From Ianthella basta (lineage: Eukaryota > Porifera > Demospongiae > Verongiida > Ianthellidae), in contig OZ025874.1 in assembly GCA_964019415.1 (NCBI GenBank), forward strand, positions 3,819,696 to 3,883,695: a stretch of DNA of 64,000 nucleotides, given 5' to 3'. Below are positions 12,622-63,580 of this stretch, piece after piece; the first letter of the stretch is position 1, and each line of letters opens with the position of its first letter. Both the position numbers and the translations under genes were made by a program. Under the pieces are notes generated by a model. It was not told the origin of the DNA. It searched no databases and was given only the letters and a program-made list of their open reading frames with translations.

Positions 12622-27657
<15,036 letters not shown>

Positions 27658-28309: not shown

Positions 28310-28951
<642 letters not shown>

Positions 28952-30739
28952 ATGGCCGCTAGCAGCAACCAGGTGGTAAGGGGGCGTGCAGGTACGTACC
29001 AAGTGAGCCAGAGCATCGGGAAGGGAGCGTATGGGGAGGTGTTCCTGGTGAAGAGCAAAAAGGATAGGAAATTGGTGAGTTCTATAAGAAGATTCATGGC
29101 TACCTTATCGTATGAGCGTAAGCGTTTACCAATCAATGTACGTAAATCATGAGTGCAGTGTTACTATGGGGAGGCCGTGGCGGGAGAAATGCATTTTGCT
29201 GTATGTTCTATTTCAACTGCATAGTTTACAGTATTAGTATTCATTGTATGTACATTGGCATCATATTGCTGCAAACTGATCAGTAATGTGTGCACACCAT
29301 TTTGCTGCATGACAAATTACATAGACAGCTTCAGAGTCTGAGGTTGACCCAAGACATAGACACATATAGCGTAGATCTAACATTGGGCATGTGTTTCTGC
29401 ACCAGTTCTGTAGTGTCTAGACCCACCCCTGTAGCTACCTAATCCCATGCAGGCCAAACTGCTATAGCCCCCTATGATTCATGTCTGCATGTTATGTGAA
29501 TCAGGATTCAAGGCAATCTGCCCAACACATGGGATGTGTTCTCACTACATGTAGAGTGTACAGAGAGAGATGGTGAGGTATGTTGCTGCAGGTCCAAGTC
29601 CAAGTGTCTGAGGCTGTGCACATCTAATGGATACCTTTCTAGTTTGCTTCTAGCGACTGCAGCAGCACTGTGGAGGGTGTTTACATACATGCATATACGC
29701 ATATCTTCACATTATGAATGGTCCTCTTTTGTGTAGTTTGTAATGAAAAACATCAAGTTGGGCAACAGTGGTGCAAAGGAGAGGACTGCAGCGGAGCAGG
29801 AGGCCTCCCTTCTCTCCCAGCTTCAGCATCCCAACATTGTGTCATATAAGGAGTCGTTCCAGGACTCGCATGGTGTCTTGCATATTGTCATGGGATACTG
29901 TGAGGGAGGTGATCTGTGTACACGTTTGAAGGCTCAGAAAGGGGTAAGGATAGACAACATGACTAGTCTCCACTCTGTGTCAGTTTGTCACTTTGTAAGC
30001 ATGCTGGTGCAGTTAGCGCCAGTTTCAACTGGTTCAGCTGCAGTAGTTGATGTTGGCTACTTTGTTCACACATTGGTGCAGTCTGATCTACAGTTTGACC
30101 TGTTTTCTGTTTCCCTGTCCAAGGTGCTTGTGTATTCCTGGTTGTTCAACTCCTTTGTTTGCTGTACATGTTTGGGATTGTCAACAGTCATCCATTCGGT
30201 GCTTACAGACTGTCAGCTATTTTATGTATGGTACAGTATAGCTACATGTACATACGTATGTGTGTAGGTTTCACTAATAGATTTCCAGGCTCCTAAGCTT
30301 TCATTGGATTGGACCGTCATCTGTGTGCACACGTGGCACTGTTTCCTCTTTGTGGTGGCCTATCCTTTCCTACATACGTGCTGTACATATGTAGTGGTGT
30401 GTGTTCTCTGTTTGGTCTTGCGTGCACAGGTACCTCTCCCAGAGTCACAAGTAATTGAGTGGTTTGTTCAGATAGCCCTGGCATTGCAGTACCTACATGA
30501 GAGGAACATCCTTCATCGAGACCTCAAGACGCAGAACATCTTCCTCAGTAGGACTGACATTATTAAAGTACGTATGTACATCAGAGTTATTGTGCAATGT
30601 ACAGTACACATGCATGGGTGTGAGTGCACTTGTACAGGTACATGCATACATACACAGACACACCGCCACCACCACAAGTACACTGCTGGACGAGCTCTTA
30701 TGTATCTCTGTCTCACACATACACACACACATACACACA

Positions 30740-30804
<65 letters not shown>

Positions 30805-30862
30805 CCACACACACACACACACACACATACACACACACACACATACACACACACACACACAG

Positions 30863-30912
<50 letters not shown>

Positions 30913-30913
30913 C

Positions 30914-30946
<33 letters not shown>

Positions 30947-30976
30947 ACACACACACATACACACACACACACACAG

Positions 30977-31028
<52 letters not shown>

Positions 31029-31029
31029 C

Positions 31030-31120
<91 letters not shown>

Positions 31121-31135
31121 CCACACACACACACA

Positions 31136-31182
<47 letters not shown>

Positions 31183-31187
31183 ACACA

Positions 31188-31260
<73 letters not shown>

Positions 31261-31267
31261 CCACACA

Positions 31268-31317
<50 letters not shown>

Positions 31318-34300
31318 CCACACGGCACACCACTACATTATACTGGTGTTGACGAATGCACATGCACGCAGACATACGTAGACACACACTTGTGGGTATA
31401 TACACATCACCACACACACTATGTAAATGTACTTCCTGCTTCCTATTAGGTTGGTGACTTGGGTATTGCCCGTGTGTTGGATGGGTCATGTGATCTAGCC
31501 CACACTGTCATCGGGACACCGTACTACATGAGCCCTGAGATATTTCAGAATCAACCGTATAATCAAAAGTCAGACATCTGGGCCTTGGGTGAGTGAATAT
31601 ATTGTGCATTTCAAAATGGCTAACAGTCCTAGCGATCAAGTTACAAGTGGTAGCTTCAACGCGCGAGACTTGGGTGTAGAACTTTCAAGCGGCACTGTAT
31701 ATAGCTCTTGTCTCTAACCACTAGTTAAGTAATTGGCTGGAAGCCGCGTACCAACTAACTGGAGTGTGTTTCTAAGTCTTGCATTTACGCCATTACGTGT
31801 AAGGTACTTAATAGAAGGTGGGAGTGTGATTGCCCTGGGACCTGTTTATGACATCCCCAACACACTGTTGAACACTGTACCTCCTGGTACCCAGAGGTCA
31901 CCGTGGACATTGTTCTGTGGGTGCTTTGTTGTGCATGTTTGCACCTGGTGGTAACAATGTAGCACATCCGGGCACACCTTCACGCTACATGTTACGGTGG
32001 TTCCCATTGGTACGAAAGTAGGGCCTGAATGTGGTGGTTTAGTGTGTTTTGCTGGCGAGCGCAGTGTACAACAATCCTCCCTGTATGGTGATCGATGAAA
32101 TCTACTCTTCTCAAGTTTGTTAAGAAGTTTGAGAGACCCCATGTTTTTGGTCTACTTGTTGTTGTAGCAGGCTTTATACTCAATGTCACCTTTGGTCTCT
32201 GTTATTCCCATGGCAACATCACTCCCTACATTATTTCGTACACACGGCGTTATTCCCTGGACCCCAGTCGAGAGTCAGTCACTCTTAGTTCTGCACCCTG
32301 GATCAGTGGTGGAGTTCTGGTGTGTCGCGCGCTCTTTGTTCCTCTTGGTGGCTGGCTGAGTAAGAAGATTGGAACCCGCTTTACTACCATACTTGGTGGT
32401 ATCCTGATTGTGACAGCCGTTTTTCTGACTGCGTTGACGATACAGCTGTCCTTCTGGGCTGTAGTACTCACATATGGCGTTTTGGTCGGAATTGGGGAAG
32501 GACTAGCGCACAACTCTGTTCTCCAAGCTGCAGTACAGTGGGTGCCTCAGTATAAAGGAGTTGTTCTAGGGCTACTCCTAGCAGGGCTTGGTCTCTCTCC
32601 CTTTGTGTTCATCCCAATTCAGACATCCCTCATCAACCCAAACAACCTACAACCGGAACACTGGCCAGACACAAGTGTCGATTTCACCTACTTCCTCCAG
32701 GACGACGTATTGGAAAGAATACCTTCTGCTTTTCTGTACATGGGGTGTATCATGCTGGCATTGCAGTTGCTGACTATTATGTTAGTGGTGGAGCCTAGAG
32801 GAGTTAGCATTGGTAAGCCTGTGACTTTCCTCTCCATAGTGCAATACCTGTGGAAGACGTTAAAGCCCTCTCCATATTTGTGTTGCAAGAACTGCAGAGA
32901 ATTCTTGGCAAATTCAAAGTCAAACGGAACTGCAGACGGCATTCCTATCACAGACCAATCACCTCCAGAAGAGAATCATGAACAAGAAACAAAATTTGGT
33001 GCAGACGATGACAGTTGTGTCAACGGGTCTACTTTGAGAAATGGTGCATCTTCTGATAACACTAGCAACACATCTGCGGATCGTGAGGAAGCCAGCCCTA
33101 AGAATGGGGAGAAAGATACAGACCAAGTCACTCCACTTCAGCTGCTAAAGCGCTGGGATTTTTATCTGTTTTGGCTTGGGTATGCTTTCATAGGCATCCC
33201 TAACGTCTACATTGTGGCAGAGTACAAGGTCTTTGGACAAGAGTTCATTTTTGATGACCACGTTTTGGCATGGATTGGATCAGCGGCATCTATTATGTAC
33301 TTCCTTGGTAGGCTCATGTGGGCATTCGTAACGGACCTGCTGGATCCAAAGTCTGTGCTAGTAGTTGTTGCAGGTGGAGTGACAGTGTTCATGTACACCC
33401 TCTACAGCTCGTCTCTTATTAAAATGTACTTACTTTGGATCTGCTTGCTCTACTTCTGGCTGGGAGGAGTGGTTACTGTTTTCCCCTGTTGCACGGCTGC
33501 TTGGTACGGATCGGAACACTTTGCCACTAACTTTGGAATAGCCTACTCCTCTCAAGTGATTGGGGGAATTGTTGCCATGATCTTGCCTGCTCTCGGTCAT
33601 CTCAATATTGGGTGGGTAGGTGAAATGTTCAGCGTTGGAACTGTCTCGCTTGTAGCAGTTGTGCTCATCATCATAGCAGGAGATCGGAAAGTAAAGAAAA
33701 AGAAGGAAAATGCACCGTAGGGAACGTGTTGTCTATGGACATACGTAACTGTTTTTCTCCTAATGTCAAGTGTTTGTATTGTATCGTACTAGTGTACGTA
33801 CATACGTATGTAGACATTGCATGCTTTTCATGTATTAATATGTAGTTGTTTGCTGTACATCACCCATTGTGTCATCTGCCATGTCACTTACTGTGTCATC
33901 CACTGTATCACCCATGTGTCATCCACTATGTCACTCATGTGTTGTCCACTGTGTCACTCACGTATTGTCCACTGTGTCACCCACTGTCTTGTCCACCATG
34001 TCAGGAATTCAACAGACATAAATACGTAGCTATTATATTTTTCTCAGAACATGAGTTTAGGCTCTTCATAGCATTGCTAATTAGACCACTTTCTATAGTC
34101 TTATTTATTTTGATTCTTTGCTAGTACATACGTGTTTGCACACATTAAGACTATGTTTATTGGATATTGTATATCCATGTTATTTACTAGTCATTCAGTC
34201 AATCTATTGTCATTGAAGCAACATTGTTGGTTTGTGGGTTTGTATCGTTGGTCACAGTTACTAATTCGCGAGCGAACATGTAGCAAGTCGATAGATGTAT

Positions 34301-40436: not shown

Positions 40437-43400
40437 TTAATACAAGGTCTCCCTGGGCCATGTTCCATCATCCTTCTTCACCTCCAGTATCATCAGATGC
40501 CCGGTGTAGATCCCTGACTCCTGAAGCATGTCATCATCTGGTGAGAGACAGGAAGATGCCCACATTCTGGAATATTACAGCTTAGACAAAAGGTTCAAAG
40601 GAGGCCAGTGGACTAGAGCACACTGTAAACCAGTTGACAGCCTCACGTCCCTGTATCCACAGACCTACCTAGTCCCAACAAATGCTACAGAACTCACTGC
40701 ACAGTGTCTGTGCACTCACCCAATGACTCACCTTTGACTTGTTCGTATGAGTTGGTCTTGTATCGGTGCCAGAGGCGACAGTCCTTCACATCAGACAGCT
40801 GGAATGCATCCAAAATGGCCTTCTTCACATCATCTAGAAGCAATCACGGAGGGAGAGAGGGAAGGCTAGCTACTTTACTGCTGTTTTATCTGCAGCCATC
40901 AAATTCATTACAGAACTTGCAGAAGGTCCACAAAATGTATAGATGGCCAACCTAGGGCAGTTGTCTTAATCATTGCAACATAAAGTCCACTCCACTCATT
41001 CTCACTTACTCACTATAACTTACACATCCTGTCCACCCTACTGAAAGTCTTGGTGACTGTACTCCCCTCCTCCAAGGGATGGAGACCTAGCTCCAGACGG
41101 ATGGGGTACACCTCAACCTACAGAGAGGAAGTGATACAGAAAATGCATGTGAAGAGATATGCTCAAGGTATTGCATAAACGCAGCACACATGTAGGCTAG
41201 CTACAGCTGTATGGACTGTGCAGTGGTGAGCGGAAATGTATTAGAGTACTGTACAAAACCATTACATGGTACTTGAGCAGCAGCAGTAGTCTGTCACAGA
41301 ATAGATATACGTAAAGCAAGAACATACACTTGAACGTATCAGTGAAAGAAAAACGTATGTAGGTAGGTACATAATGTGGTAGAGGCTCATGCTATGTTGT
41401 CTAGCAGGTTTATGAGGCGTTGATGAGCATTCACGTAGCTAAAAAGGATAGTTCAAGTAAAACATTTTGACCACGAGTCAGTTACAAAACATCAGTGTTT
41501 TGTAACTGATGAAGACCCTTGTGGTCGAAACATTTTACTTGAACTATCCTTTTTAGCTACGTGAATGCTCATCAACGCCTCATAAACCTAGGTAGGTACA
41601 TGTCAAGTCTAATGGAATTCATGACTCGGAGGAAATGTAGGCTAGGAAGAGAAAATTGGCATCAGCCGGCATCGAACCCGGGACAACCTACGTATGCCCA
41701 TTGATGGGTTTCAGTAGCCCAAAGGCAAACCAACCACAATTTGCCCTTCCCTGCCCCATAGGCTAGTTACAACTGACTCGTCTACGCATATATCTTACAT
41801 ACAAATAAATACATAGCACAATGTCATGACAAAACCGATATAGCACAGACTAAGGGGGGAGGTGTTTGGTGACTGTGAGAATGACAGGCAACCCTTGTGA
41901 TACACTTCAATTATTCCTTCCTCACAGTTAAACAACTGAAGAAGGCCTCCTGGGCAAAAACATTCTGTTATTGACTTTCTATGCTAAGTGAAATTGCTTA
42001 TCAATTCCCCCACTTGTAGATTCCTTCCTCACCTTGAGGTGTTTGACGTACACGCCCCACTCAATCACATTCCTGGCAATGGGTCGTGACCCTTCAGCCA
42101 ATCCGTACCAAATCAGTAGCTTGTTCCACCCTCCCTCAGGTACAAGAGAGTAGTCAAGATCTTCCATCAAGCTGTTTTTCAGCCTATCATTACGACCACC
42201 TCAACATGAGATGATAGAAGTTACTATAACACTCCAAATTAGACACACATATAAACATTACTGCTCAATTGACTATACACTACTAGCACAGTGTCTGAAT
42301 AGACCACACCCATATGCACAAACAGAAACAACACTGAGTGCATGGTTTCATCATGCAAAACTTGCAATACCTTCCAAAACTGCAGAAAGGGAGCACTACA
42401 CACAGGACACACAGATATGCAGGATACGTATATCCCAAGACTTTGTAGGTAGCATCTGTCTCACAGATTCGGATATAACTGGCAAACTACTTGCTTCTAA
42501 CTACAGGGTTAACTGCTGTGTGAAGAGCAGTTGCAGGAAGAAATTCTTAATCATCAACACAGCTAGGCCGTTGGAAGAGGGCCACCTCCGAAGATAGGCA
42601 CAATGGAAGAAGGCTAAGTCCGAAGACCTATTGGCAATGCGTCGACAAGACACAACTGGCCTATGGACAGTAATGACGCTAGCTGTGTCTAGTCAACACA
42701 TTGCCAAGAGGTCTTTGGACTTAGCCTTCTTCTATCGTGCCTGTCTTCGGATGTGGCCCTCTTCTAATGGCCTAGCTGTGTTTACGCATATAAATTTCTT
42801 CTGAAATCGCTTGCTTGTACAGTGGAACCTGCATAATCCGACTACTGTGTAATCCAGAGTTCTCTGCAAACCGACGTGTATTTGGAGTTTTGCTACTGAA
42901 GATAGCATACATTATGGTTCTTGATAATCTGACAATCTCTGTAATCCAACATACTTCTTGATCACCGTCGTACGTCAGATTACACAGGTTCTACTGTACA
43001 GTATAATTAAGACCTCAGATAGATGCAGACAAAGCCCAAACACAGGCCCACACACAGGTCTCACCAGAGGTGATTCATTAGCAAAGCCCTTCATAGTACA
43101 TAAGAGTGGCATATAGTATACACAAAAGCACACATACACACAAAATGCATTATACATACTTACCATTAGGTACAGTCTTCACTGATATGCTGCTCCCCTC
43201 TCCCCTTCCAACAGTAGTCTCAGCAGACACAGTGAAGTGGTACAAAGTGTTCTCCTCCAAACCTGTCACTGTGTAGCATGTGACAGATGCTGGAACATTC
43301 TCTGAACTGGTAGCGCCACTGCCAGTGCTATAGGTTAGGAAATACCCTGTAATTATGCCATCGGGTTCAGTGGGAGGAGTCCATGCTATTTGAACACTTG

Positions 43401-43523
43401 TTGCAAACCCACTCCCTCTCAGGGACATGACACTGCTGGGAGCTGCACAATGAAGGACAAATAGTGTTAAGCCAACACTAATGTTAGATAAGTGGGAGCA
43501 CACACACACACACACATACATGC

Positions 43524-43599
<76 letters not shown>

Positions 43600-46500
43600 C
43601 TACATTCACATGTATGCACACATACGTTACGTACACAGTACACACCTGTACACAAATGCACGAACACTCCCATACTACATACCTGCCAGCAGTGACTTGT
43701 TGTCAATTGGTCCAGGGTTGGCAGAATCCTCCCCAACCTGGGACCTGTCCCAGGTATCAAATCCAACATACTTCTTCCACTGCCTCATCCAACGGACATC
43801 CACAAGATACCTGTACAGTGGCAAACATGCAGCCAAACTAGAAATTACCACAATGAAAGGTTAGTTCTCCTTCAAATTTATTTTAATAGCGTAGTAATGC
43901 TGTCGTTAGTCTGGCTAGATTGACCGTCCCTAACAAACACCAGTGGTGTGGAAGGGGAGGGACGGTCTAGCGTACATACCGATTAGTTCACACCTGTGAA
44001 GAAATTCTTTGTGGCTAGGTTCTTGCATGCTGGATCGATTAGGGAAACCACAAGGGTTACCGGCTAGTGTGGTTTCCCTAATCAATCCAGTAGTTCACAC
44101 CTTTTACTTACTGCAATGTGGAAGGTGTGAAGTAGTAAACAAATGATTGACTTTGCAGATGGCCCATGGCCGAAAGCAGCAACAATGGATGGGTGTAGAT
44201 GCTTCGATTAAATGTCATTTCTTTCCAACTTTGATAGGATAAATGCTATTGATTCCTCACTGATAGAGTCACTAGCGACAACCATTTTCACAATAACAAT
44301 GAATACCATTGCCACGATTCCTTGGCAACAGTATTCATAGCAGTCGTATCTGAGCATCTCACTAGTCTGGAGTCACACAGCTAAGTGTGAATTAATCACT
44401 GTGTATGCTAGACTGTCCCTTCCTTTTGCGTCTTCCTGCCCTGGACAGTCTAGCTAGCCAGACTACGCCATTGTATGTCTGAGATTGACGTCACTTGCAG
44501 AACTGGGTTTAAACATGTGAGTGTCAATCAGATGGGAAATAAGCCAGTTACGTCCCATTTACTCTTGTGATATCCTGTCATCGCCTGTGACTTCAGCTCC
44601 ATCTCAGTCTTGGGCGACAAATAGTAAGGGATGGCATAAAAAGGGCAGAAACGCATAAATATTGCTACGAGGAGAAGCATTAACAATGGTCCCTACGTAC
44701 ATACAAGGATGGTGCAGCTACATTCTTGCATGTAAGGACATTGTTAATACTCCATTTCCTGCAGTATTTACTTGTTTCTATCCTTTTTATGCCATCCCTA
44801 CATTCTTACTACTTTTGTAGAATTTTTATCATTTCCATCTCTGCAAATGTCATGGGAGCTGTGTGTATCATGTGTGTCTAGTAGGCACTATGGAAAGAGA
44901 TCCATGTGATAACATCAACACAATCTCTATTATATATTTAGGTAGAGCTGGAATCCTCGGTTCGTAAACTACTCCTGCAGCTTGAGAGCGCAATCAATGC
45001 CTAATTTGGAAATATTATGAGGTGTGCATGGAGATGGTTATAAGGGGGTAGACGGAAGACGAATCGCCGCGCCTGTGAAGAGTGCTGCACATTTTCCCTC
45101 CATTACGGGAAAAGACAAGATTCCGGTTACGTAATGTTACAATAACACTGTGCCATGCCAAAGGGAGAGCGCTCGCTCTGCCCTGCAACAGAACTACAGC
45201 TAACACTATCTGTGGCTCCATACTGATGTAAATCAGCTACCATTGTGACACCAGAATGCAGCAACATGGTATACCTATTCCCTCTGTGAGCATGTTGCTA
45301 TTTTTTTGCACCAAGTCAATGATAGCTAGCTATATCTGTCAGCAACAACCTAGGCCTTACTTTCTGTGAGTGTGTTGCTGCTTTTAGCTGCTAGTCAATG
45401 AGCAATAGCTAACTAGCTATCGTCAACAATATTTTGCATGATATTGTTCTTACTTTGCCCATCGCAACTCCTTCCAATTGCTTCATGCCCTTTAGCTACT
45501 ACAGCTTAGTCACCTTCTGTCCACCTTTGTATATACTGCTCTTTGTTCCCTTTTTACCAATTATGCAATTGCTTCCATGCTGTTATATCTATTGTTGATT
45601 CCACTTATTCTGGGCAATTCTTTATCCACATCATGCTACACACAGCATCGCCTACAACATGCATGGTTGTGGCCTGCAACTGGCACATATATCCACACCA
45701 TTATATTCCACACTGGTGTTGCCTGGCCGTCGTGGAGCAGCTGTCGTGGTAGCACTGGAGCAGGGAAGCCCGCCGAAGGCAGGCTTTCCTGCTAGTGTGC
45801 ACTAAATACACACTTGTTGCCCACTAAGCAGTGTGTAATGGGTAAAATGCCACTGCATGACTGTATCGGGAAACAGCAAAAGCAGTGAACCAGTATACGG
45901 CCCCTTATTAGCTCCACATCCCTTATCAGTGAATGCCATTACTTACAATGTTGTCCCTTCTTCAAGTCCGCGGGCTTTCAACAGAGGTCGAAGTTCATCT
46001 GCCTGTGCCTGGGCACTGGGCATCTTCGCCTGCTGAGGTACTCCTTTGCTAATTTCATTGCCACTTTTGAGGGCATCTGCGCTAACCCGGCTCTTCATCC
46101 TTTTGGGGATGAACACAGCACAGGGACAAAACAGTAAACTGTACTAAGAAATTCACATGACAAGGATCTATAGAAATAGCATGATTTGTAATTATCTTTT
46201 TGTGCACTATCATCACATGCTTGCATGTGCTGTGGTCAGACCTTGACTTGGGAGCTGGTGCTTTCATGTCTGACTGTGTCCTGACCACAGGAGCTGCTTC
46301 AATCTACACATGACACATTTACTAAAATCACACACCAGCACAACAATGTACAAAGCATGTGCTGTTGGGCTGACCTGGCTTTTCAAGCTTTGAATAGTTG
46401 TTCCCTTAGAAATTAATTCTTGCTGGAGGTCTTGCTTCTCCTGCTGTATAGCAGAAATATCCTGCTGAAGTTGTGCATTTTTCATTTGCAAAACTGCATT

Positions 46501-47825
46501 GTCCTCTTTTATCTGTTGCACAGATTTCTCCATTGCAGCTTCACGAGCATTCAGATGCGTCACTGTTTCCTCCAGCTCAGCTTCACGAGCAGTCAGATGA
46601 GTCACTGTTTCCTCCAGCTCAGCTCCACGAACATTCAGATGAGTCACTGTTTCCTCCAGCTCAGCTCCACGAGCACTCAGATGCATCACTGTTTCCTCCA
46701 GCTCAGCTTCACGAGCATTCAGATGCGTCACTGTTTCCTCCAGCTCAGCTCCACGAGCACTCAGATGAGTCACTGTTTCCTCCAGCTCAGCTCCACGAGC
46801 ATTCAGATGAGTCACTGTTTCCTCCAGTGCTTTTTTCTCTTTCTCGAGCTTGGTAACCAATGCATCCCTTTCTGCAGTTATCTCTGCACACATGGCAGGC
46901 CAGCTGGACCTACCAGGAGGGACTTTCTGCACTAGAGCAGCTTCAATACACTTCACTTCTGTTACCACCTCAGAGCTCGTAGGACGACGGTTAGGTCTGT
47001 TATCGAGTGAGCTCTGGATAACGGGGAGGAAATGGGCCTTTTCACCTTCAGTGAGATCTTAATGTGCTGCTCGCGACGCTGGCATTCATTGAGAGCAACC
47101 AACTGCTCCCCTTCATAGCGAGTTGGCATATCAGGCGTCGGCCACTGGTGGGTTAGTGTGGCAATAATGACATTCCCAAATGAGAACACATCCAGCTTTG
47201 CATCATACTTCGGAGGCTCGCGCAATGCCTCAGGAGCCATGAAGGCCAGGGTGCCTTTGATGGAGGAGCGGCGAGTGAGTGCAGCCACGCTAATGGGCCT
47301 CGTCATTCCGAAATCGGTGATTTTCGCCTGAAAGGACCACTCGCACAACATTATGTTATTGGTGCTCAAATCGTGGTGGACCAGCGGCGGGTTCTGGTTG
47401 TGTAAGAAGCTCAACGACTGAGCGACCTGGCGTAGAACGGACACTTTATGAAGAATGGGGAACTTCTCTTTGCTATGCTGCTCTAGGTAGGCTGAAAGAG
47501 TAGTGTCCGTCTTCTCTAGGACGAGGATCGGGGTAGAAGAGCCTTTCTTGAAGTACACCCCTAACAGCTGGACGACGTTGGGATGTCGCAGTTGTGCCCA
47601 CGTCTGGCACTCTTGCTCAAAGTCACCGATGACCTTCTGCGATTCAGCAGCCGACACTCCCTCTAGAAAGATTTCGTGCACGTTCTTGGCTGCGCAGATA
47701 GTACCGTGCCAGTCGACCTCCAGAACCTGGCCGTATGACCCTCTCCCAAGCACAGCACCGGTGGGTGCCACGCCGTCAATTAGCAGGCCGTGAAATCTCT
47801 CCGAATCTGTTTTGTTAGCGGCCAT
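40437..47825 (-). CDS. Kinase-coiled coil-DUSP(FN3)-ubiquitin-like chimera
   Basis: Exons in transcript order are 47825-46375, 46303-46242, 46099-45947, 43810-43683, 43442-43164, 42199-42033, 41117-41024, 40833-40732 and 40537-40437 (TAA). Exon 1 encodes a TKL-like kinase ([40 protein letters not shown]) and, in another frame, a coiled coil of 14-residue repeats ([14 protein letters not shown]). The next exons are copies of USP exons 1-6. Their lengths (128, 167, 94, 102) equal the originals at 13582, 15325, 15953 and 16411. One extra phase 1-1 exon adds a fibronectin III domain inside DUSP. The last exon ends WPRETLY-stop, where the USP has WPRETFTSQ. Exon 1 lacks one base at about 47056; restoring it makes the whole frame 846 codons, divisible by 3. 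It could be a real fusion gene, a recent pseudogene, or carry a sequencing error. Confidence 0.72.
41406..41589. mobile_element. Hairpin MITE with long perfect arms
   Basis: The left arm AGGTTTATGAGGCGTTGATG... and the right arm ...CATCAACGCCTCATAAACCT are near-perfect inverted repeats of about 75 bp around a short centre. It lies in an intron of the kinase-DUSP chimera, and the high arm identity suggests youth. Confidence 0.8.
42558..42782. mobile_element. Hairpin MITE (ACACAGCTAGGCC ends)
   Basis: The arms share 'cacagctaggcc', 'agagggccac', 'ccgaagata' and 'gaagaaggctaagtccgaagacct', inverted around 42670. It lies upstream of the copied USP exon 3, inside a chimera intron. Confidence 0.75.
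42820..42996. mobile_element. CAGTGGAACC-type MITE, chimera intron
   Basis: The left end CAGTGGAACCTGCATAATCC and the right end GATTACACAGGTTCTACTG are inverted and flanked by TA. It belongs to the same family as 18582 and 19801. Confidence 0.75.
43164..43442 (-). other. Fibronectin type III exon inserted in DUSP
   Basis: A 279-bp exon, phase 1 at both ends, encodes one complete FN3 domain: [12 protein letters not shown], the conserved W in [20 protein letters not shown], then [24 protein letters not shown] and ISVKTVP. It is an exon of the kinase chimera. It sits between copies of USP exons 2 and 3 and so splits the DUSP domain. The intact USP gene has no FN3 exon in the matching intron (13710-15324). 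Symmetric 1-1 exons are the classic unit of exon shuffling. It could also be a skipped cassette exon, since skipping keeps frame. Confidence 0.85.
43505..43600. repeat. (CA)n microsatellite, chimera intron
   Basis: GT repeats in the sense of the chimera gene, just upstream of the FN3 exon acceptor. Confidence 0.9.
43907..44465. mobile_element. TAGTCTGGCTAG MITE
   Basis: The ends TAGTCTGGCTAG and CTAGCCAGACTA are perfect inverted repeats. Sub-terminal blocks 'gaccgtccct' and 'ggacagtcta' are related. No ORF is seen. It lies in the 2.1-kb chimera intron. Confidence 0.7.
44627..44799. mobile_element. AGGGATGGCATAAAAAGG inverted-repeat element
   Basis: It starts AGGGATGGCATAAAAAGG and ends CCTTTTTATGCCATCCCT, with a smaller inner inverted repeat. 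The remainder of the intron up to 45946 contains no recognised feature. Confidence 0.75.
46540..46830 (-). repeat. 42-bp coding repeats of the coiled coil
   Basis: Seven tandem 42-bp units encode [18 protein letters not shown] 14-mers, two heptads each, with Leu/Val at core positions. They extend the coiled coil after the kinase domain. The paralogous kinase at 62444-63580 has a coiled-coil-like tail without this expansion, so the amplification is specific to this copy. Confidence 0.9.
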
Positions 47826-57500: not shown

Positions 57501-60500
57501 AGTACCTTGTGGCAATCCAAATGGCACATGCAGCATTGTAGCACATTCAAACTTTGTGTTCCTGGGTGCTATGTAAGCTCTAACTCTCTTATTCTGAGTT
57601 GAAATTGTCATTTGCTTTTGAATGATACATTTGTACTCACTGCTCCAAATTTATTCTTGCTTGCTGCACTTGCTGCTCCAATAGAAATAGAAGAGTTCTG
57701 CACCACATTCCCTTGTATAGCAAATAAATCACATTTGACACCCTCCACTTGGGACATAGCTCATTGATTAACAGTCTGTACTTGTGTGCTTTGTGCCCTC
57801 ATACCTATATTTCAGCCACACCCCTCTCAAGCATTTCACAACTATACAGAATTCAAGATTTACAGTTGCTACCAGATACAACACTAGTGCTTACTAATGC
57901 CACCTCATGTACAATTACAACATTCCCTACCCTACCACCACTCACTCACCACTCTCTGTGCCCTTGCACTCCTCGTCCTGCTCCTTCACTTCTGCTGGTG
58001 TCCTGATGTACCTTCGGCACTGAGTTATGATGGCTTGGTACAGTGACTGGTAGGTGGTGCCATTGCGAGGCACAGTCACGAGGATGGGCAGCCCAAAGAG
58101 TCGGGTGTAGTGCTGGGTGTAGGAGCCTCCAGAGTACTGGTGGTTGAAAGTCCTGGAGCTACAAGGATGGGAAGAAGATGATAGACTAAGTGCAGCAGTA
58201 AATAGTACCATTGCAGGGGAGTTGTTGAATTCTGGGGTGGGTTCAGAGGGGGTGAAGAGTATGTGGACACAAAGCTACGTAGACTTGGCAAGGGTTAACT
58301 AGTGGATCCAAGCAGGTGCCACAGAGGGGCAGTGTGCATTAGCAGCACATAAAATCATTCATTGCTTCTTATCGTGACCTTTTCACTACCAAAACTCAGT
58401 AGACGACGGTTATACACTCCACACAAACATAACCATTGTGCACTACACCTCTCCATTTACTCAACTCACTAATGCTCTCTGTGGTAGACAGGCAGGACCA
58501 CCCAGTCAGGGTCCTCAGCACTGCTGACTGGGACCTCATAGATGTAGATGTCATCTCTGTCCAGGATGTGGTTGAGGCCCTCTCGAGGCTCATAGATCCG
58601 GTGGAAGCGATGCTGGTACACATCAATGGTGACCATCTACACACAGAGGCAGGATACAAGCCTCTACAATACATAGTGCAGCACGTCTATGACCACCTAC
58701 ATACAGGGAGGGAATGGTACAAGAAACTACTGCGGGTTATAGATCCTGTTGCCATGGTAATGTGCTTCTAAATGTTGATTCTATATCTCAGAGAAGCATT
58801 CCAATTGCTTCATGCATTATTCTAAATCCCATAAATGAATGTGGCAGGCAGAGTGTGTGTGAGGATAAATCCAATAAACATACAGTATGTTGTGTGAAGT
58901 TTATATGATGTCATGTCTCATATCTTGCTATAATACGCACTTATCACTGCGAACTATTTCTTCAGTGCTCACTGAATGGCTGCCTTATGAAGGACTAAAG
59001 GTGGGCAGTGAAGGAGTGCAACGAGAAGGCTCACATGTGGGGAGAGCTCTTCTGTTGGGCTTTCTGCATTGTCGTCAGTTACCAATGACACAGGCATTGT
59101 CAAGACAAGAGATTTTGATTGGGTTAGAGAACAGCTTAGGATCTATAATACTTAGATGCCACCCAATCAGTGCCCGTAAGGATTTAGACTACTCAGCAAA
59201 ATTCTCAGTGACATATTATGATGTCTTGCTCCCCCCACAAATACATTGAAATCCATAATACCGTATGGCTAGAAATTTTGGTTGGGAATTTATTTGTGCG
59301 ATTCGTCAATATTTACTCTGCCAAAATTTGCTATTATTACAGCCTTTTCATAGTTTCCTGTATAAACTAGGCTTGCAGATAGATGCACTAGGCCTGTAGG
59401 CTAATTGCCGGCATGGGGTCCACCAACGACAGGTGTGCATGAGGACACCATTTCTCGAAGAGTTCTGGACTGGAGGTGGGAGAAGAGCGGTCTTATCAGT
59501 ATGGCAATCTGAATGGTGTCTTGTATCCAGTTGCTGTGAAGACTGACCTTGATATAGTTGTCTGTCATTTACTGAGGAAGTTTCTGTGTCGGAGCTTTAT
59601 GATTGTGTACGATATCACAGGCAGCAGGTGAGTGTCAGCAGATCTACCACAAGGAGGCTCGGAAGTCTCTCGCATGTTGAAGAATTCGCAGACAAGGTAA
59701 AGTATTTGAACAAAAATACGTAGTCCAGACAACAATTTGTACACTACTCAGTTACATTTAATCGTCATTTGTAACTTAGCTCCGCCCGTTCCCTGATTAG
59801 CCATTCGCTATAAATATCATCATGGCATAAAGCTTGCCCAACCACCAAAGTAAATTTGCCAAATGCCACAATTTCAGCAATCTGCCAAAATTTCTGGCCA
59901 TATGATATACAGTCGTGTTGTAATGCTCTTCTACAGAACTTATAAAGGAGAGTACACGGAACACCAACGAGAGGGGGGTGATGCAAGCGGATGCAAATGA
60001 ACACGTTCCACACAGAACATGAGGCAAGACACAACTTAATCAACAACAAACACTACAAACAATAGTGAAAAATAGCACTAGAATACACAAAGCATTGAAT
60101 ACAATATATAGCAATAGTAAACAAGACTACATGTCACTACAAGTTGTTACGCCCATATGCACCAAGCAATCTTCCACACACCTACATGTATATGTATACT
60201 GTAGATAAACAAACATGCACACACACAAACACACAAAATAAGCAGTACCTTGCTACTGTCCAATCCACTGAGTCTGGCCATCTCCTCCTGAAGATCGCTT
60301 ATAGTGCCTTGTTTGGGCAACTTGAGTTTGTACTGAGCAATGGAATGAAAGGGCAAGAGAGTCCAGGTAAACAGATGGCTCTCAAATATTCATTGACACA
60401 CTATGCATTACACAGATCCAATCATACATACGTATGTATATGTCATTACAAATAGGCTGCTATACAATTGGAATGGGCCTAGGTTACTCTTGTATGTTGT

Positions 60501-63500
60501 CAGTTGCAGACTAAACAGTGATATATATATAGACCCTGCACCTTCTTGATGCTCCAAAGTGTGAGTAAAGCTTTGTTTTTGCATCCAACCAAGTCACCAC
60601 ATCGTTTTAACTTCATGATTGAGCCAAACCAGTTTTCAAATCACATCCTCATGAGGTTAGTTGAATCTGTATTGGCTTGTTCTAAATCTATTTCGGTTTG
60701 AATGCACTGAACCAGTTTTATATTACTTTGCATTTAGTTTTGCACGCTTGTGTGAACACCATAGTTGCCAGGCAACATTTATGCAGAGATGAACCTGAAT
60801 ACATACATACATAGATCCCATTGCTATGGTAACGTGCATCTGAACAATGATTCTATCTCAGAGAAGCATTCCAATCGCTTCGTGCATGATTCTAAATCCT
60901 GTAGACATACGAGGCAGGCAGAGTGCACATGATGATAAATGCCTACAACGTATGTTGTGGGCAGAGTGCATGTGAGAATTATATGAATCATGACAGCCAT
61001 TTTGTAGCTGCTGTAGGATGCTCTTGTCGCTGTGAACTATTCTTTCATTTCTTGTCCAATGGCCTTCTACGAAGTAGTATTAAGGACAGATGACAAAGAA
61101 GCGTAATGAGAAGGTTCACGGGTGCCAGAGAGTTCTCTTATTGCATGGGCTCTCGCAACATCATTGGTTGCAAGTGATGCGGACATCGTCAAGAGGAGAT
61201 AGGGGAGATGAATTTGATTGGATTAGAGAATGGTTTTTGGATCTATATAACTTAAATGCCACCCAATCAGTATTTGTGATGATTTAGACCACTCAGCACT
61301 TGGGCACTTTGTGCCCTTGAGCTTTGTGCTCTAAATCTCACAGACACCTCTAGGGCGGCATTTAATTAACTAATACATACACACAACATTACTCATACTT
61401 AGATGTGAACAGATACACCCAATGTGAACCAGAATAAAATGCCATGTGCTCTCTATTAAATTACAGCATTAACTGATTATACTGCTTATTGCTCCTGTCT
61501 ATATAAGCAGCTGAAATTTCCAGTTGTGATCTTCACAATTTGTCTGTAGGCTTGTTGCCATTTGATGTGCATTTGATCCAGGATGCAATGTGTGTTGCTT
61601 GAGTCTGGATCAATGTGCACATAGCATTGCCACATTCATACTACATTTGAATCACCAGTTTTAATGTAGAAACACAATTATACAATTTGTTGTCACAAGG
61701 AAATAGGTGATACAAAACATCCTGCATCGTCGTCTTTAGTCAGTTTTCTCTGGACCTTGCCAAGTTGGATTGGCTTGTTCTGTACACTGGTCAATGCTAC
61801 AGTTGCATCCCAGCTCTATTTCAACCCAGCCACCCACCTCGGCATTGAAGCAGGGAATAAATGTTCCATGTAGGCTATTTTGAGTGAATACGGGTACCAC
61901 AATGTTGCAATTTGTCATTTGTATGGTTGCTATTTCATTTCAGCCACTGCACCGTCACTATGTTGGCTATTCTTGCCTTCAAATGTATGAGCTCAATTGT
62001 GTATTGAACTTCAGTATGAATTGAATATTCAGTATGAATTGAAAGCACCTTGGGAGGCAGTTTTGCCGAATCTGGATTTGATCTGGATTACAATCAATGT
62101 GTAATAAGTGTGAACGCTCAAATTCGGTTCGATCTGGATTGAATCTGGATGCAAAGTCCTTAAGGAGATATGCATGTGAACTTGGGATGGAGATCATGCA
62201 CACTCACACTTTCCAATAGAAGATTAGGGTCTATTCTCACCAGAGTGGTACCCAGCAACCTCTGCAAGTTCAACACAATGGAAAAGTTACATAAAAAGTG
62301 TTTGAGTGTAAAATTGCTTTATCACATTTCAAACTTCTGTCAATCAAAACAATGGTATGCAATTATTGACACATGCAGCGCCAAAACTTTAATTGTTAAC
62401 AGAAATGTATATATACACTCAAGTTCATTTCAGCTTAACATACCTGATGTGGACTTCCAGTGTTATCCTTCACCGCCCTTAAGTGACACTGCAAGTAGCA
62501 CTTTTCCTGTTTCAAAATGGTACACTCTTCTTGCAGTACTTTGTTTGTCTTATTCAATTCACAAATGGACTGCTTCAGATCAAGCTCACTACGCCTGAGG
62601 CGACCATTGGCTTCTTGAAGTGCTGCTATCGTTTCCTCATTCTTGCTGTATGCACCCACTTGCTGAGATAAGTCACTCTGAATGCGCTTCATCTCTTGCA
62701 CCATCTCTGAACTAGATGGACGACGACTTGCCCTATTTTGTAAGGTGTTCTGAATGATCTCCCGAAACAGGGCTTTCTCAGTTTCGTTCAACAGCTCAAT
62801 GTGATGCTCACGCCTCTGAAACTCATTCAGAGCAACCAACTGCTCGGAATCATTTTCGTAACGAGTTGCCAATTCAGGCGTGGGCCACTGATGGCTTAGG
62901 GTGGAAAGAACAACATTCCCAAACGAGAACACATCCAGCTTTGCATCATACTTTGGAGGCTCGCGCAGTGCCTCAGGAGCCATGAAGGCCAGAGTGCCTT
63001 TGATGGAGGAGCGGCGAGTGAGTGTAGCAACGCTTATTGCCCGGGTCATTCCGAAATCGGTAATCTTCGCCTGAAGAGACCATTTGCACAACAATATGTT
63101 ATTGGTGCTCAAATCGTGGTGGACCAGCGGCGGGTTCTGGTTGTGTAAGAAGCTCAACGACTGAGCAACCTGGCGTAGAACGGACACTTTGTGAAGAATG
63201 GGGAACTTCTCTTTGCTATGCTGCTCGACGTAGGCGGAAAGAGTAGTGTCCATCTTCTCTAAGACGAGGATCGGGGCGGGTGAATCCTTCCTGAAGTACA
63301 CCCCTAACAGCTGGACCACGTTGGGGTGCCGCAGTTGTGCCCACGTCTGGCACTCTCGCTCAAAGTCACCGATGACCCTACGTGATTCGGCTGCCGACAC
63401 ACCCTGCAGAAATATCTCGTGCACGTTCTTGGCCGCGCAGATTGTTCCGTGCCAATCAACCTCTAGAACCTGGCCGTACGACCCTCTACCAAGGACAGTG

Positions 63501-63580
63501 CCAGTGGGTGTCACGCCATCAATCACCAGGCCGCGAAAGCTTTCCGAAACTGAGCCAAGTTTAGCCTTAGATTCAGCCAT
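53439..63580 (-). CDS. Kinase-coiled coil-USP insert chimera
   Basis: Exons in transcript order: 63580-62444, 62261-62208, 60332-60249, 58636-58470, 58158-57950, 54710-54534 and 53545-53478, with a stop at 53439-53441 if the last donor is not used. Exon 1 (379 codons) is an intact TKL-like kinase: GRGSYGQV at 31-38, Lys51, HHDLSTNN at 154-161, DFG at 175-177, APE at 201-203, then a coiled coil rich in Leu/Glu/Lys. The next exons copy parts of the USP insert: a stub of exon 12 (LVRIDP), exon 13 (84 bp), 14 (167 bp), 15 (209 bp), 17 (with the EEEE run) and 18 (68 bp). Lengths and phases match the parent, and exons 1-7 sum to 632 in-frame codons. No protease catalytic box is present. Whether these exons form one transcript is inferred from phase and splice sites. 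Confidence 0.7.
54448..54533. repeat. (CA)n microsatellite at copied exon 17 donor
   Basis: GT repeats in gene sense begin exactly at the donor after the copied USP exon 17, mirroring 22314. Confidence 0.9.
54850..54965. repeat. Dispersed repeat, copy 3
   Basis: Contains 'agaggtgtctg', 'gaagcacc', 'gtggtctaaa' and 'ctgattgg', shared with the other copies of this family. Confidence 0.45.
55120..55789. mobile_element. Foldback element, copy 2, with 14-bp target duplication
   Basis: Same family as 1611-2154. It is flanked by perfect 14-bp direct repeats ACATAGAATAATTA at 55106-55119 and 55790-55803. It contains two head-to-head units, the second from about 55480, each opening with 'taatcactgg' and carrying 'ctggagggccggagccc'. 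It ends CCAACCTCTCA. It lies in an intron of the second kinase chimera. Confidence 0.85.
55800..56340 (-). mobile_element. LINE reverse-transcriptase fragment (c)
   Basis: Minus-strand frames read SEDARMECELEKRIGAALN (56333-56148) and, later, RKRLRGRPRMQWSE (55989-55801). Both are stock phrases of the C-terminal part of non-LTR reverse transcriptases. The frames are broken, so it is inactive. Confidence 0.7.
56566..57108. mobile_element. ACCGTATATG inverted-repeat element
   Basis: It begins ACCGTATATGTTTGTATAGA and ends with the inverted CATATACGGT. Phrases 'tagaggccgggctcaaatagaagc' recur inside both ends. A central unique block (56750-57000) has a plus-strand frame with MSTKKSYYFPQLKAVEAQKS, not recognised. 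Confidence 0.7.
58960..59195. repeat. Dispersed repeat, copy 4
   Basis: Shares 'gagaaggctcac', 'gagagctcttct.ttgggct', 'gttaccaatgac' and 'tagatgccacccaatcag' with copies 2 and 5. The stretch from 59200 to 60248 otherwise shows no recognised feature. Confidence 0.5.
61030..61365. repeat. Dispersed repeat, copy 5
   Basis: The longest copy: 'gaaggttcacgggtgccagagagttctc', 'gcggacatcgtcaagaggagata', 'aatgccacccaatcag', then 'gtgctctaaatctcacagacacctctag'. The surrounding 60333-62207 intron holds nothing else recognised. Confidence 0.5.

What the first reader, a model, noticed from the sequence alone, without database searches (positions are those of the whole stretch)
40437..47825. Kinase fused to the DUSP and ubiquitin-like front end of a deubiquitinase
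A minus-strand TKL-like kinase with a coiled coil is followed, through phase-compatible splice sites, by two linker exons and then copies of USP exons 2-6 with identical lengths. The linker's end ([22 protein letters not shown]) is itself homologous to USP exon 1. The total frame, with one base restored in exon 1, is exactly 846 codons and ends at a TAA in the copied exon 6. I know of no described animal protein with kinase, coiled coil, DUSP and FN3 together. A kinase that borrows the substrate- or spliceosome-binding DUSP-UBL module could phosphorylate the USP's partners or compete with the USP.
Basis: partly seen in the sequence, partly recalled or inferred. Interest (0 to 1): 0.92.

Follow-up and report, generated by a model that had tools for sequence, protein, structure and literature searches.

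The report
Kinases fused to deubiquitinase regulatory domains
In this probable sponge genome, three neighbouring protein kinases carry pieces copied from a deubiquitinating enzyme's own regulatory parts, which suggests a way to bring a kinase to the ubiquitin machinery; it is not yet shown that the proteins are made.

Summary
At 40437-47825(-) (F1), a TKL-like kinase with a coiled coil runs through phase-matched GT-AG introns into copies of exons 1-6 of the neighbouring USP4/11/15-type gene (DUSP and ubiquitin-like domain), plus an FN3 exon. One 1-bp frameshift sits in the kinase exon. A second copy 28 kb further on, outside the window (F2), is an intact 686-aa kinase-coiled coil-DUSP-UBL frame without FN3. 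A third kinase (F3, 63580-54534) is spliced in frame to most of the same USP's insert, the part that interrupts its catalytic domain; in human USP4 the DUSP-UBL binds that insert (PMC4243247). Between F1 and F2, exons hold 1 frameshifting indel against 29 in as much intron; dN/dS is 0.35. Of 216 related kinase ORFs from public assemblies, 13 end with the USP exon-1 peptide, exactly at its splice boundary. The family's usual C-terminal partner here is an NHL propeller (89 of 128 scored kinases). So this is very probably a real fusion family in which USP docking modules replaced NHL. Most likely the kinase docks on the USP or its partners. Transcription and function are untested; F1 itself may be impaired.

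The parts
46375..47825 (-). F1 exon 1: kinase domain plus coiled coil; 1-bp frameshift relative to F2 near the end of the kinase domain
   Evidence: Pfam PK_Tyr_Ser-Thr 7.6e-33; GT donor
46242..46303 (-). F1 linker exon l1 (62 nt), needed to keep frame; donor GTCTGA is weak
   Evidence: same length in F2; a DNA search with l1+l2 matched F1, F2 and, for the end of l2, the USP only; similar peptide at the same place in P0020 (by eye)
45947..46099 (-). F1 linker exon l2; its end is homologous to USP exon 1 (start of DUSP)
43683..43810 (-). F1 copy of USP exon 2 (first half of DUSP)
   Evidence: 128 nt in all three copies; 96.9% identical to USP
43164..43442 (-). F1-only FN3 exon (279 nt, symmetric) inserted inside the DUSP
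   Evidence: Pfam fn3 7.1e-15; nearest relatives in a tandem FN3 array at C12:7.11-7.13 Mb, 77% aa, 83% nt
42033..42199 (-). F1 copy of USP exon 3 (second half of DUSP)
   Evidence: 167 nt in all copies; 94.9% over 158 aligned nt
41024..41117 (-). F1 copy of USP exon 4 (start of UBL)
   Evidence: 94 nt in all copies; 96.8%
40732..40833 (-). F1 copy of USP exon 5 (UBL)
   Evidence: 102 nt in all copies; 93.1%
40437..40537 (-). F1 copy of USP exon 6 (end of UBL), ending in TAA; F2 stops at the corresponding place
62444..63580 (-). F3 exon 1: intact kinase plus coiled coil
   Evidence: Pfam Pkinase 2.5e-35
62208..62261 (-). F3 exon 2: homologous to the last 54 nt of USP exon 12 (start of the insert)
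   Evidence: place in USP4 by alignment
60249..60332 (-). F3 exon 3: copy of USP exon 13 (UBL2)
58470..58636 (-). F3 exon 4: copy of USP exon 14 (UBL2)
   Evidence: 98% aa identity to USP; Pfam USP7_C2 4.4e-08 over residues 396-479 of F3
57950..58158 (-). F3 exon 5: copy of USP exon 15
   Evidence: 94% aa identity
54534..54710 (-). F3 exon 6: partial copy of USP exon 17 (exon 16 has no copy); start placed by eye at an AG, downstream end unresolved (TG repeat)
   Evidence: 90% aa identity over 30 residues; acceptor
12684..22313 (+). Parent USP4/11/15-type gene, exons 1-17 as modelled here (catalytic Cys region in exons 8-11)
23277..26126 (+). Parent USP, second half of the catalytic domain; no copy on the minus strand within the 124 kb examined

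Best explanation
F1 and F2 are paralogous genes for a kinase-coiled coil-DUSP-UBL protein, and F3 is a sister gene for a kinase-coiled coil-USP insert protein. They belong to a large TKL-like kinase family whose usual C-terminal module in this genome is an NHL propeller. Beside the USP gene that module was replaced by regulatory, non-catalytic parts of the USP. Mechanism (inferred): the coiled coil dimerises the kinase; the DUSP-UBL of F1/F2 docks on what the USP's own DUSP-UBL docks on, namely the insert of the USP (or of F3) and recruiting partners of the SART3/BRAP kind. That places an active kinase next to the deubiquitinase and its complexes, to phosphorylate them, and may also activate or compete with the USP in trans. 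Shown here: gene structure, frames, constraint, the shared end of F1/F2, fused ORFs in public assemblies, kinase motifs. Inferred: expression, splicing of l1/l2, docking, substrates. I give about 0.85 to a real fusion gene at F2 and its kin, and about 0.4 to docking on the USP or its partners as the main function.
For: F2 is an open 686-aa frame over 8 exons with kinase 1.5e-33, DUSP 1.4e-19, Ubiquitin_3 6e-15. F1 versus F2: 1 frameshifting indel in 2051 aligned exon bp against 29 in 2040 aligned bp of six introns, p 2.8e-8; without the worst-aligned intron 1 against 13, p 2.7e-5. dN/dS of DUSP-UBL: USP-F1 0.28, USP-F2 0.35, F1-F2 0.35; kinase 0.16-0.19; F3 insert 0.44 with and 0.32 without its first exon. 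Changes on the F1 and F2 branches together are short of nonsynonymous ones, p 0.008. USP exon 7, just past the shared stop, aligns over only 9-10 of 76 nt in F1 and F2. 13 of 216 related kinase ORFs end with the USP exon-1 peptide; 9 end exactly at its last Trp and 4 go on with Tyr-Val, as expected of GT splice donors at that place. For one of them, P0040, the best match in this whole genome is F2 at 53%, so it comes from another genome and its nearest kin here is F2. 89 of 128 scored kinases have an NHL exon downstream on the same strand, 0 on the other; the C7 three have none among the rows compared. Kinase motifs GxGxxG, AAK, HHD, DFG, APE are intact in F2 (motif reading recalled). USP4 DUSP-Ubl binds the isolated insert (KDfit ~44 uM) and raises catalytic-domain activity in trans up to about ninefold (PMC4243247, passages and section 10).
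Against: No transcript or protein data. F1 has a frameshift in the kinase exon, and its DUSP is split by FN3. The l1 donor (GTCTGA) is weak. The coiled coil/linker shows weaker constraint (0.46). Per-branch tests are marginal (F1 p 0.048, F2 p 0.054). The DNA behind the public ORFs could not be read, so DUSP exons 2-6 downstream of those tails are not shown; 203 of the 216 ORFs lack the tail. The USP4 interaction is weak and was measured on the human protein. No kinase-DUSP protein appeared among the 19 hits of the DUSP-UBL search.
Confidence: 0.6

Rival explanations
1. Two separate genes: the kinase ends after its coiled coil, and a truncated DUSP-UBL minigene starts at the ATG at the second base of exon l2 (46098). 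The minigene would act alone as a trans regulator of the USP.
For: The l1-l2 intron has stops in the frame of that ATG in both F1 and F2; the l1 donor is weak; DUSP-UBL alone can activate human USP4 in trans.
Against: In public ORFs such as P0032, P0040 and P0106 the USP exon-1 peptide sits in one uninterrupted frame with kinase and coiled coil. l1 keeps the frame between kinase and DUSP in both F1 and F2. Frameshifting indels are depleted in exons taken together, linkers included.
Confidence: 0.12
2. Decaying debris: inverted USP duplications landed behind kinase genes and are pseudogene fragments; the frame is left over from a recent origin.
For: F1 frameshift; the copies lack the catalytic exons; F1 and F2 branches are only moderately constrained.
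Against: Intact F2 and F3 frames; indel contrast between exons and introns, and exon 7 past the stop no longer aligns while exons 2-5 do; recurrence in other kinase clades.
Confidence: 0.1
3. F1 alone is a pseudogene or null allele, F2 and F3 being the working genes.
For: Of the three fusions only F1 has a frameshift; FN3 interrupts its DUSP.
Against: The rest of F1 is open; its DUSP-UBL branch has 9 synonymous and 10 nonsynonymous changes (p 0.048); a single-base slip may be an assembly error; the FN3 exon is symmetric and could be skipped without loss of frame.
Confidence: 0.35
4. Assembly artefact joining unrelated segments.
For: None found.
Against: Two diverged copies with homologous introns and upstream flank, and fused ORFs in public assemblies.
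Confidence: 0.02

Closest known systems
USP4/USP11/USP15 deubiquitinases
   Same: DUSP-UBL of F2 matches solved USP15 DUSP-UBL over 192 of 199 query residues (best E 9.6e-59), and USP4 and USP11; exon lengths match the local USP
   Different: No catalytic domain; fused behind a kinase and coiled coil; ends after the UBL
Kinase-coiled coil-NHL family in this genome and in public ORFs (P0149, P0153)
   Same: Same kinase family and coiled-coil layout
   Different: C-terminal module is an NHL propeller (Pfam NHL 1e-25 for the one exon tested) and not a USP part
Raf/CTR1-like TKL kinases
   Same: Best solved-structure matches of the kinase domain are CTR1 (2.6e-27), then WNK, one tyrosine kinase (7t6f) and B-Raf
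   Different: Pfam found no Raf-type regulatory domain in F2; own large expansion
PIPSL, hominoid chimeric gene (PMC2773790, start of abstract in the search listing; its kinase and ubiquitin-binding make-up is recalled)
   Same: A kinase gene joined to a ubiquitin-system gene
   Different: Made by co-retroposition; a lipid kinase and no introns (recalled); here introns are kept and the kinase is a protein kinase
Plant kinase fusion proteins with integrated decoys (search listing only)
   Same: Kinases with swapped accessory domains, at the level of design
   Different: No homology claimed; no immune role tested here

Membership tests
USP4/11/15 deubiquitinases | N-terminal DUSP plus UBL | tested here: met
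   F1 and F2: Pfam DUSP and Ubiquitin_3 above cut-off
USP4/11/15 deubiquitinases | USP catalytic domain with Cys and His boxes | tested here: not met
   D1 and D2 exons found only in the + strand USP among 124 kb
Active protein kinase (TKL group) | Kinase fold profile and catalytic motifs (glycine loop, Lys, HxD, DFG, APE) | tested here: met
   Pfam 1.5e-33 for F2; motifs read in the translation; activity not testable here
Kinase-coiled coil-NHL family | Kinase related to the expanded family, with coiled coil | tested here: met
   The other 125 scored kinases are 49-59% identical to the F3 kinase; coiled-coil tails of the loci read (by eye)
Kinase-coiled coil-NHL family | NHL exon downstream | tested here: not met
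   None within 6 kb of F1, F2 or F3 among the 142 NHL rows compared; one search had 214 matches, 150 listed
Expressed fusion gene | mRNA spanning the kinase-to-DUSP junctions | not testable with these tools
   No RNA data
Conserved fusion family | Kinase and USP exon-1 peptide in one ORF in other genomes | tested here: met
   13 of 216 ORFs; whole-genome check that the ORF is foreign to this genome was answered for P0040 only
Conserved fusion family | DUSP exons 2-6 follow in those genomes | not testable with these tools

The most novel reading that the evidence does not exclude
A kinase family has split a deubiquitinase's internal switch between separate kinases: F1/F2 carry the DUSP-UBL and F3 carries most of the insert that the DUSP-UBL binds in USP4. 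The kinases would pair with each other or plug into the USP in trans, coupling phosphorylation to deubiquitination, or serve as integrated baits for whatever attacks that switch. The same kinase family may have joined the same USP exon more than once: a single clade of the three groups that hold exon-1-tailed kinases is rejected at AU p 0.0014, though one old fusion with later losses is not excluded.
Probability: 0.27. Interest if true: 0.9.

Novelty: new variant of a known kind. Interest (0 to 1): 0.78.

Why it matters
The searches made here met no annotated protein that joins a protein kinase to a DUSP domain: none by the Pfam columns of the 19 hits or of the 120 listed (of 547); the paper searches (20 of 442 listed; 0 papers; 8 of 24 listed) showed none in titles and abstract starts. 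If expressed, it is a natural test of how a kinase can be wired to a deubiquitinase by borrowing the enzyme's own regulatory contact. It also shows a modular kinase family exchanging its C-terminal recognition domain (NHL, DUSP-UBL, USP insert, FN3), with intermediate states still readable in the DNA. The binding prediction (F1/F2 DUSP-UBL to F3 or USP insert) can be tested directly.

Tried and rejected
Considered and set aside: chance juxtaposition (second copy F2, fused ORFs elsewhere); FN3 as part of the ancestral design (present in F1 only; nearest relatives on C12; loss from F2 is not excluded); a whole second USP on the minus strand (exons 7-11 and the second half of the catalytic domain have no copy there); other kinase-DUSP loci in this genome (the 6 and 15 DUSP-UBL exon rows fall in three loci only, at those thresholds). 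A genome-contig scan with P0032 found no relative. Solved-structure search with the F3 insert gave no match. First USP models had wrong exon ends, so one search's downstream frame is wrong; one search is the corrected one. The u2-u3 intron, which holds FN3 in F1, was left out of the indel count. Rows left out: one search used 75 rows (64 of the 216 ORFs, 8 of the own-genome kinases, F1-F3); one search used 72, without P0038, P0162 and P0222 (long branches). One search left out the last two codons and 2 ambiguous sites. One search also gave weak rows (P0192 iE 0.033 and worse), not counted. One search compared 128 scored of 784 kinase candidates with 142 NHL rows pasted from the 150 listed of 214. 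Whole-genome checks of P0106 and P0032 did not complete; against the 72 loci held, the 13 tailed ORFs match at most 87%.
Full report
The window is C7:3819696-3883695 of an unnamed 209-Mb genome in 96 contigs. The finding calls for a search of sponge proteomes; I did not establish the species. The parent gene, a USP4/11/15-type deubiquitinase, runs on the + strand from about 12.6 kb, with DUSP-UBL in exons 1-6, the Cys region in exons 8-11, the insert beginning within exon 12, and the second half of the catalytic domain at 23.3-26.1 kb.

F1, the reported locus, is confirmed. Nine exons on the minus strand have GT-AG introns and matching phases. Copies of USP exons 2-5 keep their lengths exactly, and exon 6 is copied up to a TAA. 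Pfam finds kinase, DUSP, FN3 and Ubiquitin_3 in the two pieces on either side of the single frameshift. The FN3 exon is symmetric (279 nt) and lies inside the DUSP; its nearest relatives are FN3 exons of a tandem array on C12, 77% identical in protein and 83% in DNA. It is therefore probably an exon gained from elsewhere, and might be skipped without loss of frame.

Genome-wide searches found DUSP-UBL exons in only three loci: the USP, F1, and a locus 28 kb beyond F1 (33 kb start to start), outside the window. The last one, F2 (C7:3895547-3900710), has the same kinase, coiled coil, linkers and USP exons, no FN3, no frameshift, and a 686-aa open frame. F1 and F2 stop at the corresponding place in exon 6. 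Beyond that stop, USP exon 7 cannot be aligned to either (9-10 of 76 nt), whereas exons 2-5 are 92-97% identical.

A third kinase at 63580-62444 (F3) is spliced in frame to copies of the end of USP exon 12, exons 13-15 and part of exon 17; exon 16 has no copy. By alignment with vertebrate USP4 proteins and a Dysidea USP4-like protein, this stretch begins close to the start of the insert that interrupts the catalytic domain and covers most of it (insert 485-775 in human USP4 from PMC4243247; the offset between numberings rests partly on recall). Pfam finds USP7_C2, a model also listed for USP4 proteins, in the F3 stretch. The end of F3 is unresolved.

Are these genes or remnants? Between F1 and F2, 1 frameshifting indel falls in 2051 aligned exon bases and 29 in 2040 aligned bases of six introns; without the badly aligned l2-u2 intron it is 1 against 13, p 2.7e-5. 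dN/dS is 0.28-0.35 for the DUSP-UBL comparisons, 0.16-0.19 for the kinases, 0.46 for coiled coil and linkers, and for the F3 insert 0.44 with its first exon and 0.32 without it. Assigning changes to branches with a transition-weighted neutral expectation, F1 has 9 synonymous and 10 nonsynonymous (p 0.048), F2 13 and 18 (p 0.054), both together p 0.008. The constraint is real but moderate.

The strongest support comes from elsewhere. A protein search with F2 returned kinase ORFs, mostly from ENA assemblies without names (120 listed of 547), and one with an alignment of tailed ORFs returned more (120 listed of 665); together 216 ORFs. A profile made from the USP exon-1 peptide alone finds it at the end of 13 of them, at 13.9 to 44.4 bits; the best of the shuffled tails of the 120 ORFs reached 7.3 bits, and the best real row not counted 8.9. 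In 9 of the 13 the ORF ends exactly after the last Trp of that peptide and in 4 it goes on with Tyr-Val, as expected if the ORF runs into a GT splice donor at the USP's own exon-1 boundary; the DNA itself was not seen. P0026 and P0037 share one tail and may be near copies. In such ORFs the start of the DUSP is in one uninterrupted frame with the kinase, which speaks against two separate genes. Some ENA ORFs without the tail may come from this very species (P0049 lies at almost no distance from a kinase of this genome in the tree). The tailed ones do not look so: P0040's best match in this whole genome is F2 at 53%; only the three C7 kinases here exceed 59% identity to F3, and P0032, which matches them at 75-87%, differs from each of them in having its tail in the kinase exon. 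For P0106 the whole-genome check did not complete; its best match among 72 held loci is 59%. P0020 shows an l1-like peptide at the right place, and P0035 an off-frame reading that resembles F3 exon 2 (by eye); P0021, P0023 and P0035 share a listed contig length (469223), which suggests one contig.

A kinase tree puts the tailed ORFs into three groups: A (P0039-P0046), B (F1, F2, F3 and 18 relatives, of which 3 ORFs show the tail) and C (P0059, P0106). A and B fall together (92/66, not starred); A+B+C as one clade is rejected (AU p 0.0014, groups named after a first tree was seen). Either the fusion arose more than once, or it is old and was lost in the expanded families.

The family context is informative. 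The kinase has 125 further scored relatives in this genome, out of 784 candidates, mostly on C11. Of the 128 scored kinases, 89 have an NHL exon downstream on the same strand within 6 kb (median 2.2 kb), 0 on the opposite strand, while 54 have one upstream on the same strand, as a tandem array would give; 39, the C7 three among them, have none. P0149 and P0153 hold kinase, coiled coil and NHL in one ORF. So the usual plan is kinase-coiled coil-NHL, and beside the USP the NHL part was exchanged for USP parts.

How it may work. The kinase keeps the glycine loop, the lysine, HHD, DFG and APE (motif reading recalled; sequence), and the nearest solved kinases include CTR1, WNK and B-Raf. In human USP4, DUSP-Ubl added in trans raises catalytic-domain activity up to about ninefold, and it binds the isolated insert with KDfit about 44 uM (PMC4243247, passages and section 10 read). 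The review PMC7935551 (passages read) lists BRAP as a DUSP-UBL binder, SART3 as binding between DUSP and UBL, and phosphorylation of USP4 at Ser445, Thr149 and Thr219 as regulatory. A dimeric kinase that carries the DUSP-UBL would dock on the USP's insert or on such partners; F3, which carries most of the insert, would dock on the DUSP-UBL of the USP or of F1/F2. The affinity of one module is weak, and the coiled coil could add avidity. All of this is inference from the human protein.

Limits.

Noticed in passing
window 12622-12766: The ATG of the + strand USP at 12622 is out of frame with the DUSP start in the same exon: a single-base break, another 5' exon, or an assembly slip.
   Followed up: partly
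genome G000, contig C11 and others: Very large, largely tandem family of TKL-like kinases (128 scored of 784 candidates), 89 of the 128 with an NHL propeller exon downstream.
   Followed up: partly
L008:1-760 and L008:1350-1800: A transposase-like coding stretch (by eye, Tc1/pogo type) and a long inverted-repeat element between F2 and F3.
   Followed up: no
window 29000-31500 (+): Another kinase gene (NEK-like by eye) between the USP and F1, with long CA/TG runs.
   Followed up: no
window 28310-28738 (-): Histone H3-like open frame (by eye).
   Followed up: no
window 13860-14640: Tandem array of 25-base units in USP intron 2 (26 copies of the core counted).
   Followed up: partly
C12:7.00-7.13 Mb: Dense array of FN3 exons with AG/GT flanks, the likely source of the F1 FN3 exon.
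   Followed up: partly
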